Shown here: in pieces, positions 1,849 through 5,990 of the stretch
How the letters are laid out: every line of letters begins with the position of its first letter
Numbering within the stretch: the stretch's first letter is position 1
DNA from: Methanobrevibacter sp.
GTDB lineage: Archaea > Methanobacteriota > Methanobacteria > Methanobacteriales > Methanobacteriaceae
Direction: 5' to 3'
Assembly: GCA_009784145.1 (NCBI GenBank)
Contig: WRCI01000094.1
Location: forward strand, 1 to 6,638
DNA length: 6,638 nt
Made by a program: the position numbers and the translations under genes
The notes under the pieces: model-generated
What the model saw: only the letters and a program-made list of their open reading frames with translations
Told to the model about the DNA's origin: nothing
Databases searched by the model: none

Positions 1849-3744
1849 TTATTTATTAACAATAAAACTTCTTAGTTTATTTGCCACTTCTTGATGATAG
1901 ATAAGTAAATTATGAGTTTTGTCTAATTCTACTTTTAGTTGCTGGTATTTTTTAATTAAATCATTATATTCTTCTTCTAATTTTTCTATTTCATAGCTAT
2001 TAGAAGACTTTAACTCAGTCATTTTTCTTTTTTGTTCTTCAATATGTGAGTTTAAAAATTCTATTCTTTCAGTTAGCTCTTTTTTATCAATTTTTAGCTT
2101 ATTTATACTAGCCATATAGTTTTCTTTCTCTACTCTATTAATGATATTTTCTCCAATATCTTCTTTTTTGGCATCACTAAGCTTTTCTTCGAAATTCTTT
2201 TTCAAATCAATTATTTCATTTTCTATATTTTTATTTTTTTCAAGCTTCTTTTCAAGAACTTCAATTGTATTTTGTAATTCAGATACTTTATTCGCATTTT
2301 CTTTATTCAAAGCAGCTAATTTTTCATTTAATTCTATTCTAGATTGAAGTTCTACTTTTAAAGCTTTTTTAAGTTCATTTTTCTCAGCATTAATTTTTTG
2401 ATTAATTCTTTCTAAATTAGCTATTTTTTCTTTTAGCATTCCATTTTCTTCAATCTTTACAGTTTCTCTTGAGTTGGTTTCATTTTTGTCTTCTTTTATT
2501 TTATTTTCCAAACCATTCACTTGTGTTTTTAAATTTTTTATTCTTTCCTTTAATTTAGCATTTTCACCTGTTCGCAATTCTTTCATTTTTTTTAGTTTTG
2601 CTATTGCTTGTTGTTCATTTTCTCTTAATTTGTTTGCTTTTTCATTTGTTTTAGCTATTGATTCCTTGTGAGTCTGTTTTAATGAAGTGATTTCTTCTCT
2701 TAAGCTAGTTATTAATTTGTTTGTTTTTTCTCTTTCTTCTTCTAGTAGTTTTTTTCTTTCTTTAGCTAGTAGTTGGTTTGTTTTTGCATTTGTTTTAGCT
2801 AGTAGTTGGTTTGTTTTTTCTTTTTCTTCTTCTAGTATTTTTTCCCTTTCTTCTTTTAGCAGTTGGGTTGTTTTTTCTTTTTCTTCTTCTAGTAGTTTTT
2901 CTATTTTTTCTCTTTCTTTAGCTATTAATTCTTCAGTTTTTGCATTTGTTTTAGCTAGTAGTTGGTTTGTTCTTTCCTTTTCCTCTTTTAGTAGCTTTTC
3001 CACTTTTACTTTTTCTTCTTCTAGTTTTTCTATTTTTTCTTTTTCTTCAGCTATTAGTTGTTTTGTTTCTTCATTTATTTTAGCTAGTAGCTGGTTTGTC
3101 TTTTTCCTTTCTTCTTCTAGTAATTTTTCTGTTTCTGCTTTATCTTCTAGTAGTTTTTCTATTTTTTCTTTTTCTTCAGTTAATAGTTGGTTTGATTTTT
3201 CTTTTTCTTCTTCTAGTAGTTTTTCTATTTTTTCCTTTTCTTTAGCTAATACTTGATTTGTTTTTTCCTTTTCTTTAGCTATTAGTTGTTTTGATTCTTT
3301 ATTAACTCTAGCTATTAATTGGCTTGTTTTTTCCTTTTCTTTAGCTAATAATTTTTGGGGATCTTCTTTTGCAACTTTTTCTAAATTAGCTATTTTTGTT
3401 TCATATTCTGAAAGAATCGCATTTCTTTCTTCTAATTCTTCTTTTAAATTTTGTGTTTCTTTACCATCACTTTTATCTTTAGTTTGAAAGGCTAAATCTT
3501 TGTTTGTTTCTTTTAATGACCCAACTTCTTCTTCTAATTTAGTTATTTTATTTAGAAAATCTTTTATTTCTTCAGCATTTTTTTCAGAAATAACTAAAAC
3601 TGTTTCTTCGTCTTTAAATATATTTTCTTCTTTAGGGACTGTTATTTGGAATTGTTCAGTTTTATATTTTTTCTTTTTCCCATTTTTCAGTGTTCTAGTA
3701 TATTCTCTTGTATACTTTTTCACAGTGCTTTTAGCAAATTCCAT
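1849..3744 (-). CDS. Long coiled-coil protein with central hendecad repeats
   Basis: The 631-residue protein has no recognisable enzyme domain, signal peptide or membrane helix. Residues 1-60 are a small basic segment containing TLKNGKKKKYKTEQFQITVP, which looks like a beta hairpin and may be a folded head. Residues 61-131 are helical and charged. Residues 132-343 are about 20 tandem units such as LLEEEKEKTNQ, LLAKEKEKIEK and LLAKTNAKTNQ, mostly 11 residues long. Residues 344-631 are a less regular coiled coil rich in K, E, N and L. It is very poor in Pro and Gly and has no Cys or Trp, as expected for a rod. The start ATG follows GGGGAT with 6 nt spacing; this is a weak ribosome-binding site. 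Database names such as SMC-like would reflect only coiled-coil similarity, since no Walker motifs are present. A structural or scaffolding role is plausible, but the function is unknown. Confidence 0.85.
   Translation of the reverse strand: MEFAKSTVKKYTREYTRTLKNGKKKKYKTEQFQITVPKEENIFKDEETVLVISEKNAEEIKDFLNKITKLEEEVGSLKETNKDLAFQTKDKSDGKETQNLKEELEERNAILSEYETKIANLEKVAKEDPQKLLAKEKEKTSQLIARVNKESKQLIAKEKEKTNQVLAKEKEKIEKLLEEEKEKSNQLLTEEKEKIEKLLEDKAETEKLLEEERKKTNQLLAKINEETKQLIAEEKEKIEKLEEEKVKVEKLLKEEKERTNQLLAKTNAKTEELIAKEREKIEKLLEEEKEKTTQLLKEEREKILEEEKEKTNQLLAKTNAKTNQLLAKERKKLLEEEREKTNKLITSLREEITSLKQTHKESIAKTNEKANKLRENEQQAIAKLKKMKELRTGENAKLKERIKNLKTQVNGLENKIKEDKNETNSRETVKIEENGMLKEKIANLERINQKINAEKNELKKALKVELQSRIELNEKLAALNKENANKVSELQNTIEVLEKKLEKNKNIENEIIDLKKNFEEKLSDAKKEDIGENIINRVEKENYMASINKLKIDKKELTERIEFLNSHIEEQKRKMTELKSSNSYEIEKLEEEYNDLIKKYQQLKVELDKTHNLLIYHQEVANKLRSFIVNK
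2716..3351 (-). repeat. 33-bp coding repeats for 11-residue coiled-coil units
   Basis: This stretch encodes residues 132-343 as 20 consecutive units: 15 are exactly 11 residues, and five are shorter (10, 10, 9, 10 and 8). DNA identity is high in places: 2780-2815 is repeated exactly at 2936-2971 (36 bp), and 2872-2910 is repeated exactly at 3196-3234 (39 bp). Such conserved DNA between distant units points to recent expansion or gene-conversion-like copying, and copy number may vary between strains. Confidence 0.85.
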
Positions 3745-5135: not shown

Positions 5136-5163
5136 TTGGAAGCTAAAAAAGAGAAGCTTCCGA
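5136..5163 (+). other. Hairpin GGAAGCT/AGCTTCC
   Basis: GGAAGCT at 5138-5144 pairs perfectly with AGCTTCC at 5155-5161 around an A-rich 10-nt loop. A T-G and a T-A pair extend it to nine pairs at 5136-5163. It directly abuts the first copy of the GAAGACAC motif. It is not followed by a U-tract, so it is not a standard terminator. Confidence 0.5.
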
Positions 5164-5185
5164 AGACACATACACATCAACAATA
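5162..5185 (+). repeat. Upstream copy of the GAAGACAC / ATACACATCAACAATA motif
   Basis: GAAGACAC (5162-5169) is followed directly by ATACACATCAACAATA (5170-5185). Both words recur in the same order at 5323-5352, inside the structured RNA, with six extra bases (GAAAAT) between them. Twenty-four matched, fairly GC-containing bases in this AT-rich DNA are unlikely by chance. Confidence 0.75.
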
Positions 5186-5204: not shown

Positions 5205-5215
5205 TTATATATAAA
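5205..5215 (+). promoter_or_regulatory. TATA box of the structured RNA
   Basis: TTATATATAAA is a close match to the archaeal box A. Counting about 25 bp downstream predicts a start near 5235-5240, just before the 5' arm of the long inverted repeat at 5244. This agreement makes it more credible than other TATA-like strings here. Confidence 0.5.
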
Positions 5216-5251
5216 CTTTTTTATATCATGAAATTTAATTATTAAATGTAG

Positions 5252-5318
5252 TCCTCTATAGTTAAAGATATTTAACACTATAAACAAGGCAATATATAAA
5301 TGTATTGCTTATAGGGGA
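5252..5318 (+). promoter_or_regulatory. Three-way RNA junction in the leader
   Basis: TCCTCTATA (5252-5260) pairs with TATAGGGGA (5310-5318), nine pairs including one U-G. Hairpin A, GTTAAA/TTTAAC at 5261-5276 with loop GATA, stacks directly on its inner end. Hairpin B, 5288-5294 with 5303-5309 (GCAATA/TATTGC core), lies flush against 5310. Only 11 linker bases (5277-5287) are unpaired. The 5' strand of this junction is the same segment that pairs with the 3' end of the RNA, so the two folds exclude each other. Confidence 0.6.
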
Positions 5319-5322
5319 GTTT

Positions 5323-5352
5323 GAAGACACGAAAATATACACATCAACAATA
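5323..5352 (+). repeat. Internal copy of the GAAGACAC / ATACACATCAACAATA motif
   Basis: GAAGACAC at 5323-5330 and ATACACATCAACAATA at 5337-5352 repeat the words found at 5162-5185, here separated by GAAAAT. The copy sits between the three-way junction and the ribosome-binding-site hairpin, in a stretch with little predicted pairing. It could therefore be an accessible site for a protein or an antisense RNA. Confidence 0.7.
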
Positions 5353-5369
5353 GTATATTTTTCTTTTTG

Positions 5370-5395
5370 CTCCTACTTATTATGTAGGGGGTGGT
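5370..5395 (+). promoter_or_regulatory. Hairpin covering the Shine-Dalgarno of the 30-aa peptide
   Basis: CTCCTAC (5370-5376) pairs with GTAGGGG (5384-5390) around a 7-nt loop. The right arm runs into the ribosome-binding site GGGGGTGGT (5387-5395), which matches GGAGGTGAT at seven of nine bases and ends 4 nt before the ATG. Folding would hide about half of the site, so translation should depend on opening it. GGGGAG at 5314-5319 could compete for CTCC at 5370-5373. Confidence 0.55.
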
Positions 5396-5399
5396 AGAT

Positions 5400-5492
5400 A
5401 TGTCAGTAGTTTTTATTTTAGAACTGCTATTTTTAGTTGCTTCTTTAGTAATAATTCTACTTAAAATTATCGTCATGTTCTTAACGAACTAA
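5400..5492 (+). CDS. 30-residue hydrophobic peptide, type I toxin-like
   Basis: The frame starts at an ATG 4 nt after a strong G-rich ribosome-binding site and ends at TAA 5490-5492. The peptide begins MSVVFILELLFLVASLVIIL and ends with LKIIVMFLTN. It is one continuous hydrophobic helix of about 26 residues with a single Glu (residue 8) and a single Lys (residue 22), enough to span the membrane. Size and pattern resemble bacterial membrane toxins TisB (29 aa) and DinQ (27 aa), although no alignment is claimed. It lies inside an RNA whose ends are paired and whose ribosome-binding site is masked, as in those systems. A small harmless membrane subunit or a chance frame are the alternatives. GC-containing codons such as ATC, GTC, ACG and AAC in a very AT-rich setting argue mildly against a random open stretch. 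Confidence 0.5.
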   Translation: MSVVFILELLFLVASLVIILLKIIVMFLTN

Positions 5493-5511
5493 GTAAAAGG
5501 TTTTTATACGA

Positions 5512-5530
5512 TATAGAGGGCTACATTTTT
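5512..5530 (+). terminator. 3' arm plus U-tract ending the structured RNA
   Basis: TATAGAGGGCTACATTT (5512-5528) is the 3' arm of the long inverted repeat and ends in five T (5526-5530). A U-tract after base-paired sequence fits a transcript end here. Because the partner arm lies about 250 nt upstream, the pairing can form only once the full RNA has been made. Confidence 0.5.
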
Positions 5531-5550
5531 CTAATGACTTATATATTTTC

Positions 5551-5676
5551 TCACCTAACTTCTTCCCTTATTCTTTCATCCCTTCTTATTTCCTCTTTTT
5601 CACCCTTATTACATATCCAACCTAGAACCCCACATATAACAATTGCTAAAATTATTCCCATTATAGTACCTATCAT
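5551..5676 (-). CDS. 41-residue single-pass membrane protein
   Basis: The frame has ATG at 5676 and TGA at 5551. GGTGA (5685-5681) lies 4 nt upstream, a textbook archaeal ribosome-binding site, and fixes the start. Residues 2-21 (IGTIMGIILAIVICGVLGWI) form one membrane helix with Gly spacing, followed by Cys22 and a very charged tail KGEKEEIRRDERIREEVR, which would be cytoplasmic by the positive-inside rule. It is too short for most gene callers. It converges on the 30-aa peptide gene, with 58 bp between the two stop codons. I do not recognise the family. It could be an immunity or antitoxin partner, a small subunit of a membrane complex, or unrelated to its neighbour. A frame on the other strand (5534-5704, +) lacks a ribosome-binding site and is judged a shadow. 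Confidence 0.6.
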   Translation of the reverse strand: MIGTIMGIILAIVICGVLGWICNKGEKEEIRRDERIREEVR

Positions 5677-5730
5677 TTTTTCACCACTGATTTTATATAT
5701 TTAATAAATAAACAAAATATTTAATTAAAA

Positions 5731-5738
5731 TTATATAA
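5731..5738 (-). promoter_or_regulatory. Candidate TATA box of the 41-aa gene
   Basis: TTATATAA is self-complementary and lies 55 bp before the ATG at 5676 on the minus strand. It would place the start near 5706, with a leader of about 30 nt that includes GGTGA. A closer ATATATAAAA at about 5701-5692 would leave no room for the ribosome-binding site. Confidence 0.35.
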
Positions 5739-5786
5739 CCAACACCCCCAAGTAAGCCTGTTATTAATCTTAAATTATTATTATTT

Positions 5787-5805
5787 GTCCTCATAGGGAC
5801 TGTCC
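5787..5805. other. GGAC/GTCC palindrome cluster
   Basis: GGAC-T-GTCC at 5797-5805 is a perfect interrupted palindrome, and GTCC at 5787-5790 gives an alternative partner for the same GGAC. The word AGGGACTGTCC resembles the ends of some insertion sequences from memory, but no second end is visible in this window. The stretch 5739-5824 otherwise shows no gene. Confidence 0.3.
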
Positions 5806-5824
5806 ATTTTGTTCATGATTTGAA

Positions 5825-5934
5825 TTGAGGGTCGGTCAAAAATAGCTTTTTTCAAAAAAAGTTTCTTTTTTTACTAAACAAAGGATTTTCATAATGTTTT
5901 GACAATCTGAGATGGAATTTTGACCGACCCTCAA
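5825..5934. mobile_element. 110-bp MITE-like element with perfect 17-bp terminal inverted repeats
   Basis: TTGAGGGTCGGTCAAAA at 5825-5841 is matched exactly in reverse complement by 5918-5934. The ends are far richer in GC than the flanks. The 76-bp interior has no open frame and contains A- and T-runs that form a small hairpin (5854-5861 with 5865-5872). If the ends are read as 5826 and 5933, both flanks are AAT, a possible 3-bp target duplication but weak in this composition. Size, perfect ends and lack of coding capacity fit a non-autonomous element moved by a transposase encoded elsewhere. A strong bidirectional terminator hairpin is the other reading, but the ends are 76 bp apart, which is long for that. 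Confidence 0.6.
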
Positions 5935-5990
5935 ATAAATAAAAAAATTAATAATTAAGTGAAGTATATTGTAAAAATAAGTAACAATAT

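What the first reader, a model, noticed from the sequence alone, without database searches (positions are those of the whole stretch)
5205..5530. Possible type I toxin-like mRNA in an archaeon
A TATA box, a 17-bp pairing between the two ends of a roughly 285-nt RNA, a masked ribosome-binding site, a 30-residue membrane-helix frame and a U-tract occur in the right order and spacing. Bacterial hok, tisB and dinQ mRNAs share this layout. I know of no established type I toxin of this kind in methanogenic archaea.
Basis: partly seen in the sequence, partly recalled or inferred. Interest (0 to 1): 0.8.

Follow-up and report, generated by a model that had tools for sequence, protein, structure and literature searches.

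The report
Archaeal type I toxin–antitoxin family
A methane-producing archaeon carries a 30-residue hydrophobic peptide gene, likely a toxin, next to a divergent gene predicted to make a short antisense RNA that would silence it; in seven such loci from five related genomes the two matching stretches vary between loci yet still match within each locus, which makes this likely the first type I toxin–antitoxin family seen in archaea.

Summary
The RNA folds far better than its shuffles (z -6.4), its ends pair over 17 bp, and a 30-aa membrane-peptide frame follows an SD. Seven complete loci were found in 5 of 138 Methanobacteriaceae genomes, two of them in the cultured Methanobrevibacter cuticularis. 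In all seven the end stem is kept although its sequence varies.

The missed half is an antitoxin. A copy of a leader stretch lies upstream, beyond two back-to-back TATA boxes. Read on the minus strand it would give a ~50-75-nt RNA: 21-24 nt antisense to the toxin leader, then a hairpin. The antisense sequence varies between loci but fits its own leader (-25 to -35 kcal/mol; -10 to -23 for unlike loci; only the true pairing of 720 reaches the cognate sum). A TATA box is centred 26-27 nt before the antisense segment in 7 of 7. Four toxin-side copies with no antitoxin in view all have broken frames; three antitoxins stand alone.

The layout is that of istR/tisB and zorO/orzO, with end pairing as in hok and aapA. 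Transcripts and toxicity are untested, and folding does not settle how translation is switched. No archaeal type I system turned up in the papers searched.

The parts
5138..5161 (-). terminal hairpin of the predicted antitoxin RNA (stem 5138-5144 / 5155-5161)
   Evidence: Sequence; 7-bp stem; a hairpin is at the same place in 7 of 7 loci
5162..5185 (-). antisense segment of the predicted antitoxin RNA (repeat A); start expected at about 5186
   Evidence: Repeats 5323-5352 with one 6-nt gap (16-nt block E 6.5e-6 against 620 nt upstream, plus an 8-nt block); duplex with own leader -34.2 kcal/mol, 0 of 500 shuffles as good
5208..5215 (-). TATA box of the antitoxin, TTTATATA on the minus strand
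   Evidence: Centred 26 nt before repeat A; offset 26-27 in 7 of 7 loci, exact octamer in 6 of 7; background 7 of 4601 minus-strand positions, these six included
5218..5227 (+). TATA box of the toxin mRNA, TTTTTATATC
   Evidence: Centred 23-25 nt before the 5' arm
5244..5260 (+). 5' arm of the end-to-end stem, at the predicted RNA start
5311..5319 (+). SD-like stretch that can pair with the anti-SD
   Evidence: Fold of the free RNA
5323..5352 (+). antitoxin target in the toxin leader (repeat T)
5370..5377 (+). anti-SD CTCCTACT, able to pair with the SD or with the SD-like stretch
5387..5394 (+). Shine-Dalgarno sequence GGGGGTGG
5400..5492 (+). 30-codon frame MSVVFILELLFLVASLVIILLKIIVMFLTN, predicted membrane-helix toxin
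5512..5528 (+). 3' arm of the end-to-end stem
5526..5532 (+). U-tract, predicted end of the toxin mRNA

Best explanation
The locus is likely a type I toxin-antitoxin pair of an archaeon: the plus strand is predicted to give a ~285-nt mRNA for a 30-residue membrane peptide that is likely toxic, and the minus strand, from a TATA box next to the toxin promoter, is predicted to give a short RNA that is complementary to 24 nt of the toxin leader and would silence it. Inferred working: the full-length mRNA closes on itself by pairing its 5' and 3' ends and hides its SD, so fresh transcript would not be translated until it is processed or refolded. The antitoxin would bind the hairpin that precedes the SD and block translation, probably with cleavage of the duplex. 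In the window and in L040 the fold model suggests how: antitoxin binding frees the anti-SD from the SD-like stretch and lets it pair with the SD. If the antitoxin were lost, surviving mRNA would give the peptide, which would insert into the membrane. Shown by sequence: the end stem with changes on both sides, the frame, the two TATA boxes at near-fixed distances, and the locus-specific antisense match. Not shown: transcription, processing, translation, toxicity, antitoxin action.
For: (1) Seven complete loci in 5 genomes (window G000; L010 in G027; L040 and L084 in G026; L041 in G002; L080 and L083 in G011); L080 is a 95% copy of L041, so six are independent. (2) Antitoxin:leader energies: own locus -25.4 to -34.7, unlike loci -10.0 to -23.0 kcal/mol; 0 of 500 shuffles as good in 7 of 7; in the six independent loci 1 of 720 pairings, the true one, reaches the cognate sum. 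(3) End stem: own locus -23.1 to -29.6; 0 of 500 shuffles as good in 6 loci and 1 of 500 in L010; 1 of 720 pairings reaches the cognate sum. (4) Geometry: arms 263-279 nt apart in 7 of 7; antitoxin TATA centred 26-27 nt before the antisense segment in 7 of 7, exact TTTATATA in 6, an octamer found at 7 of 4601 minus-strand positions of these loci. (5) Frame of 28-30 codons with a hydrophobic stretch in 7 of 7; its hydropathy is reached by 0 of the open shuffles in 5 loci, 1 of 109 in L080 and 6 of 156 in L083; L041 and L080 differ by 2 synonymous and 0 other codons. (6) All 7 mRNAs fold better than 100 of 100 shuffles, z -4.3 to -7.5. (7) Four toxin-side copies with no antitoxin in the 300-500 nt printed upstream (L009, L096, L012, L079) all lack an intact frame, while three antitoxins stand alone (L078, L081, L082).
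Against: No transcript, ribosome or growth data. Fold model: the move of the anti-SD from the SD-like stretch to the SD on antitoxin binding is seen in 2 of 7 loci (window, L040) and in the window not for the 3'-trimmed RNA; in the full-length window RNA the mean openness of the SD even rises on binding (0.03 to 0.30) although opening it all costs more (5.2 to 6.6 kcal/mol). Removing the 3' arm does not open the SD: mean unpaired 0.00-0.32 with or without it, over the 7 loci. SD masking is not much deeper than for three ordinary genes of the window (0.17-0.38). Only 2 of 7 loci have an ATG start; L041 and L080 have GTG or TTG, L084 TTG, and in L083 (CTG) and L010 (ATA) the start is a guess, so these may be poorly expressed or dead. 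The four antitoxin-less copies are decayed loci (two are 3' ends only), so loss of the frame may be plain decay, and an antitoxin further off than the printed flanks was not excluded. The antitoxin 3' end in the window is uncertain: the U-run comes about 25 nt after the hairpin.
Confidence: 0.78

Rival explanations
1. A small, non-toxic membrane protein (regulator or stress peptide) whose mRNA is controlled by a neighbouring antisense RNA; the same RNA mechanics, but no toxin and no addiction.
For: The sequence data show RNA pairing and a membrane peptide, not toxicity; the peptides match no family over its cut-off. The frames beside the loci looked like ordinary chromosomal genes by eye (no family search was made on them).
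Against: Patchy presence (complete loci in 5 of 138 genomes), several unlike copies in one genome, locus-specific antisense sequences, and broken frames in the 4 copies without an antitoxin in view fit a harmful peptide better.
Confidence: 0.17
2. A small mobile element (MITE-like) whose 17-bp inverted ends are transposon termini and whose frame is incidental.
For: Inverted ends; a similar unit at several places; absent beside the same flavin-reductase gene in G002, G003 and G004.
Against: The end sequences vary between loci while pairing is kept; termini of one element would keep their sequence. The conserved unit reaches beyond the inverted ends, to the antitoxin hairpin.
Confidence: 0.03
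3. Chance pairing and a chance frame in AT-rich intergenic DNA.
For: The DNA is very AT-rich, and blastn with the locus gives a match at E <= 1 in 99 of 99 genomes, nearly all of them short AT-rich matches.
Against: z -6.4 and the same architecture in seven loci with cognate pairing.
Confidence: 0.01

Closest known systems
istR-1/tisB, shoB/ohsC, zorO/orzO, dinQ/agrB (E. coli type I systems)
   Same: Antitoxin RNA gene lies beside the toxin gene and is read divergently; complementarity (21 nt for IstR-1) to the long toxin leader, away from the start of translation; TisB is a 29-residue hydrophobic peptide (review PMC4147584, passages).
   Different: Archaeal TATA promoters, back to back; toxin peptides match no family over its cut-off; 2-6 leader nt stay unpaired inside the antisense match in 7 of 7; 5'-3' end pairing of the mRNA; host is an archaeon.
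aapA/IsoA of Helicobacter and hok/sok
   Same: Toxin mRNA closed by pairing of its 5' and 3' ends, with local anti-SD hairpins (aapA3: PMC6733600, passages; hok detail partly recalled).
   Different: In those systems the antitoxin is read from the strand opposite the toxin gene itself (recalled); here it is a separate gene upstream. A conserved mok-like leader frame is not seen: in the window one open frame crosses the target and ends 8 nt past the start of the SD, in L010 and L080 the frame open across the target runs on into the toxin frame, and in the other four all such frames end before the SD.
CreTA (type VIII; known in archaea)
   Same: Toxin-antitoxin system with an RNA antitoxin, with archaeal members (PMC8501985, PMC9458426, abstracts in the listing).
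   Different: There the toxin is an RNA and the antitoxin guides Cascade; here the predicted toxin is a peptide and the antitoxin pairs with its mRNA.
Hol_Tox (PF16935), putative holin-like toxins
   Same: Short single-helix peptide; the L010 peptide gives 17.6 bits, E 0.0036.
   Different: Below the cut-off of 23.3 bits; many other membrane stretches in this order reach 15-18 bits as well; 6 of 7 peptides, the window's included, do not match it.

Membership tests
Type I toxin-antitoxin (general) | Small hydrophobic peptide encoded on an mRNA with a structured leader | tested here: met
   28-30 residues, best 19-residue hydropathy 2.36-3.16 in 7 of 7; mRNA z -4.3 to -7.5
Type I toxin-antitoxin (general) | Antisense RNA gene complementary to the toxin mRNA | tested here: met
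   At sequence level only: cognate duplexes -25 to -35 kcal/mol in 7 of 7, 0 of 500 shuffles; TATA at 26-27 nt. The RNA itself has not been seen
Type I toxin-antitoxin (general) | Peptide is toxic when overproduced | not testable with these tools
   Needs expression
Type I toxin-antitoxin (general) | Antitoxin RNA stops toxin synthesis | not testable with these tools
   Needs RNA and translation assays; the fold model is ambiguous
istR/tisB-type divergent layout | Divergent neighbouring antitoxin gene, match in the leader away from the start codon | tested here: met
   7 of 7; in L010 the two halves are about 270 bp apart because of a repeated insertion
hok/aapA-type mRNA | 5'-3' end pairing that hides the SD in the full-length mRNA | tested here: inconclusive
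   End pairing met; SD masking predicted but not clearly deeper than in control genes, and not relieved in the model by removing the 3' arm
Hol_Tox PF16935 | Score over the Pfam cut-off | tested here: not met
   Best 17.6 against 23.3 bits, 1 of 7 peptides
Known RNA families (Rfam 15) | Match over the gathering score | tested here: not met
   0 matches in the window; in 10 loci at E <= 0.1 only a sub-threshold isrG match outside the locus
CreTA | RNA toxin and crRNA-like antitoxin beside cas genes | not tested
   No CRISPR search was made; the open, conserved peptide frame points elsewhere

The most novel reading that the evidence does not exclude
The first type I toxin-antitoxin family of the archaeal domain: a modular addiction unit of methanogens in which one RNA chassis (two back-to-back TATA boxes, end-paired mRNA, bulged antisense match) carries two unlike toxin peptides and fast-changing recognition sequences, so that one genome can hold several mutually blind pairs plus solitary antitoxins that may act as anti-addiction RNAs.
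Probability: 0.7. Interest if true: 0.92.

Novelty: new variant of a known kind. Interest (0 to 1): 0.85.

Why it matters
Type I systems are described as limited to a few bacterial phyla (PMC12390103, passages: Proteobacteria, Firmicutes and Tenericutes before its own cyanobacterial case). A family in methanogens would show that antisense-guarded membrane toxins work, or arose anew, with archaeal promoters and a different membrane. It also gives a ready test case: M. cuticularis DSM 11139 holds two unlike complete pairs and a solitary antitoxin, so specificity can be tested by swapping pairs. The rule used here, a repeat that matches within a locus but varies between loci, can be scanned for in other archaea.

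Tried and rejected
Rejected: MITE (ends change in step, conserved unit reaches beyond them). Rejected: Hol_Tox membership (below cut-off, noise-level); DUF4083 matches of 3 of 7 peptides, best E 0.021 and below cut-off. Rejected: weak R3 matches L121-L126 (E 0.1-0.36), read by eye: no layout, and no leader repeat except a long coding repeat in L126 and an 11-nt match in L122. Rejected: 12 viral contigs found with a short SD-hairpin pattern, read by eye as other sequence; 2 of the 5 genome contigs matches (Bacillota, Chitinophagaceae), read by eye as other sequence. Rejected: most blastn matches, short AT-rich matches near the TATA region. Led nowhere: tblastn of the window peptide against plasmids, no match; tRNA neighbours, none in 12 loci; R2 and R3 searches of family, order and phylum gave no complete locus beyond the seven, with the stricter filters used above 40 genomes. 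The PHROGs and PADLOC libraries and the phage and E. coli collections were not searched. The RNAalifold alignment of four mRNAs breaks the L083 end stem, probably by misalignment, so stem counts were taken from per-locus duplexes. In one search the rows with L041 start one pair off register, and those with L040 are not anchored on the same outer pairs; neither is used.

Full report
What was checked. The window is contig C94 of a 1.5-Mb, 65%-complete genome, searched here together with its family, which tie to Methanobrevibacter. The RNA 5237-5535 folds to -79.4 kcal/mol; 200 shuffles average -51.6 +/- 4.3. Its two ends pair over 17 consecutive bp, 5244-5260 with 5512-5528. The frame 5400-5492 reads MSVVFILELLFLVASLVIILLKIIVMFLTN.

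Homologues. blastn with the locus in 99 genomes gave two clear matches (L009, L010) and a 3' end (L012) among much AT-rich noise. A covariance model from window and L010 found L040 and, weakly (E 0.023), L041 in 138 genomes of the family. L041 as query gave L080 (first L067), L084 (L068), L083 (L077) and the solitary antitoxins; L040 as query gave one 3' end, L079; L083 as query gave L096. Complete loci: window (G000), L010 (G027), L040 and L084 (G026), L041 (G002), L080 and L083 (G011). A named-genome scan whose contigs have the same lengths (13,140; 33,516; 11,108) identifies G011 as Methanobrevibacter cuticularis DSM 11139 and G026 as Methanobrevibacter sp. Hm464_bin67; M. cuticularis came from a termite hindgut (PMC4919416, abstract in the listing).

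The antitoxin. In the window 5162-5185 repeats 5323-5352 with a 6-nt gap. The first copy lies upstream of the toxin promoter; the second lies in the toxin leader. In every other complete locus the same two places hold a repeat of a varying sequence. Read on the minus strand, the box TTTATATA is centred 26-27 nt before the upstream copy in 7 of 7 loci, exact in 6 and TTTAAATA in L010; the exact octamer occurs at 7 of 4601 minus-strand positions of these loci. After the antisense part comes a hairpin in 7 of 7; in the L041 type an invariant U-rich stretch follows it in 7 of 7 sequences, solitary ones included. That a TATA box centred 26-27 nt before a start is usual in archaea is recalled knowledge.

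Pairing is specific. The first 32 nt of each antitoxin were paired with each leader. Own-locus energies: window -34.2, L010 -25.4, L040 -33.9, L041 -32.5, L080 -34.7, L083 -31.9, L084 -32.5; unlike loci -10.0 to -23.0; the near-identical L041 and L080 cross-match at -32 to -35. In the six independent loci (L080 dropped) only 1 of 720 pairings, the true one, reaches the cognate sum. The repeats had been picked by eye before this test; the leader was searched whole. Each duplex leaves 2-6 leader nucleotides unpaired in its middle.

End stem. Own-locus energies -23.1 to -29.6. Pairs outside the L041 type reach -6.8 to -17.1; loci of the L041 type cross-pair at -21.8 to -29.4 because they are alike. 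1 of 720 pairings reaches the cognate sum. Between window and L010, anchored on the shared outer five pairs, 6 of 12 pairs changed on both sides and none on one side. A plus-strand TATA-like box, 6-7 of 8 matching, is centred 23-28 nt before the 5' arm in 7 of 7 (best candidate in the 50 nt upstream, ties broken towards 26 nt, so this is weaker evidence than the minus-strand box).

Peptides. Two types: window, L010, L040 (the latter two 38% and 32% identical to the window) and L041, L080, L083, L084 (14-17% to the window). They have no Pfam match over cut-off and no NCBIfam match better than E 0.23. L041 and L080 differ by 2 synonymous codons, L041 and L084 by 3 synonymous and 3 other codons. 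Start codons: ATG in window and L040, GTG or TTG in L041 and L080, TTG in L084; in L083 (CTG) and L010 (ATA) the start is a guess.

Partial copies. Toxin-side with no antitoxin in the printed flanks: L009 (frame interrupted, leader replaced), L096 (deletion over the start), L012 and L079 (3' ends only): 0 of 4 with an intact frame, against 7 of 7 for copies with an antitoxin. This fits a harmful peptide but also plain decay. The L083 antitoxin still fits the L096 remnant leader of the same genome (-29.7). Solitary antitoxins: L078 (G011), L081 (the window's own genome), L082 (G003); they fit no known leader well (-10 to -20).

Mechanism. With the antitoxin target blocked, the fold of the full window and L040 mRNA shifts: the anti-SD leaves the SD-like stretch and pairs with the SD (window 0.1 to 5.4 expected pairs, L040 1.6 to 5.7). 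Yet the window SD becomes on average more open by this (0.03 to 0.30) while the cost of opening it wholly rises (5.2 to 6.6 kcal/mol). In L010 the anti-SD is on the SD in both states; in L041, L080 and L084 the SD is closed by other pairings in both; in L083 it is partly open in both. Removing the 3' arm does not open the SD in the model. So the switch is a proposal supported in 2 of 7 loci, and activation by trimming is an inference from hok and aapA, not from these folds. Common to all seven are the end stem and an antitoxin site in the leader upstream of the SD. Duplex cleavage is an alternative or addition.

Spread. Complete loci in 5 of the 138 family genomes held; one further genome (G003) has a solitary antitoxin; nothing more in 150 genomes of the order or 151 of the phylum, at the sensitivity of the model with its stricter filters. 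The flavin-reductase gene beside the window's unit is present in 4 of 5 genomes of the genus; around it in G002, G003 and G004 blastn finds only short AT-rich matches to the unit, and the flippase gene lies near it in G002 and G003 in another order. So the unit is accessory there.

Known or new. Listings of searches showed no archaeal type I system; others (20 of 88 papers; 20 of 27; 8 of 15; 12 of 13) were listed only in part, and one search was too loose to count. PMC12390103 (passages) states that type I systems were known only from Proteobacteria, Firmicutes and Tenericutes. PMC6523106 (passages) reports antisense RNAs at archaeal type II systems. PMC3510493 on a Methanosarcina sRNA names a type I system only as a staphylococcal comparison (passage). 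TADB 3.0 (PMC10767807, passages) predicted 16,009 type I loci in a set of 34,257 bacterial and 532 archaeal genomes; the passages seen do not say whether any is archaeal. Subscription papers and preprints are not in that library.

Noticed in passing
L081 (own genome G000:C108:4747-4840), L078, L082: Solitary antitoxin genes with TATA-like box, antisense part and terminal hairpin but no toxin beside them; possible relics or anti-addiction RNAs.
   Followed up: partly
5820-5841 and 5918-5939: 22-nt inverted repeat around GAGGGTCGGTCAAAA, 91% complementary, 76 nt apart: looks like a small MITE or IS end pair.
   Followed up: no
5551-5676 (-) and 5693-5794 (-): Two further short hydrophobic frames; the second resembles the end of DUF2085 below cut-off.
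   Followed up: no
L010:458-640: The insertion that separates antitoxin and toxin in L010 resembles stretches on contigs C41, C42 and C74 of the same genome, 72-74% identical.
   Followed up: partly
1849-3744 (-): 631-residue coiled-coil-like protein with internal repeats; a frame with a similar N-terminus lies beside the flavin reductase in G003 (L135, by eye).
   Followed up: no
L137 (G115:C59:472-573): A Hol_Tox match over its cut-off (53.5 bits, 39-residue frame) in a genome of the family; a stray bacterial contig is possible.
   Followed up: no
L066 and L067: The 95%-identical units in G002 and M. cuticularis, put in different genera here, both lie near a lysine-tRNA-ligase-like frame (name from recall): shared site or transfer.
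   Followed up: no
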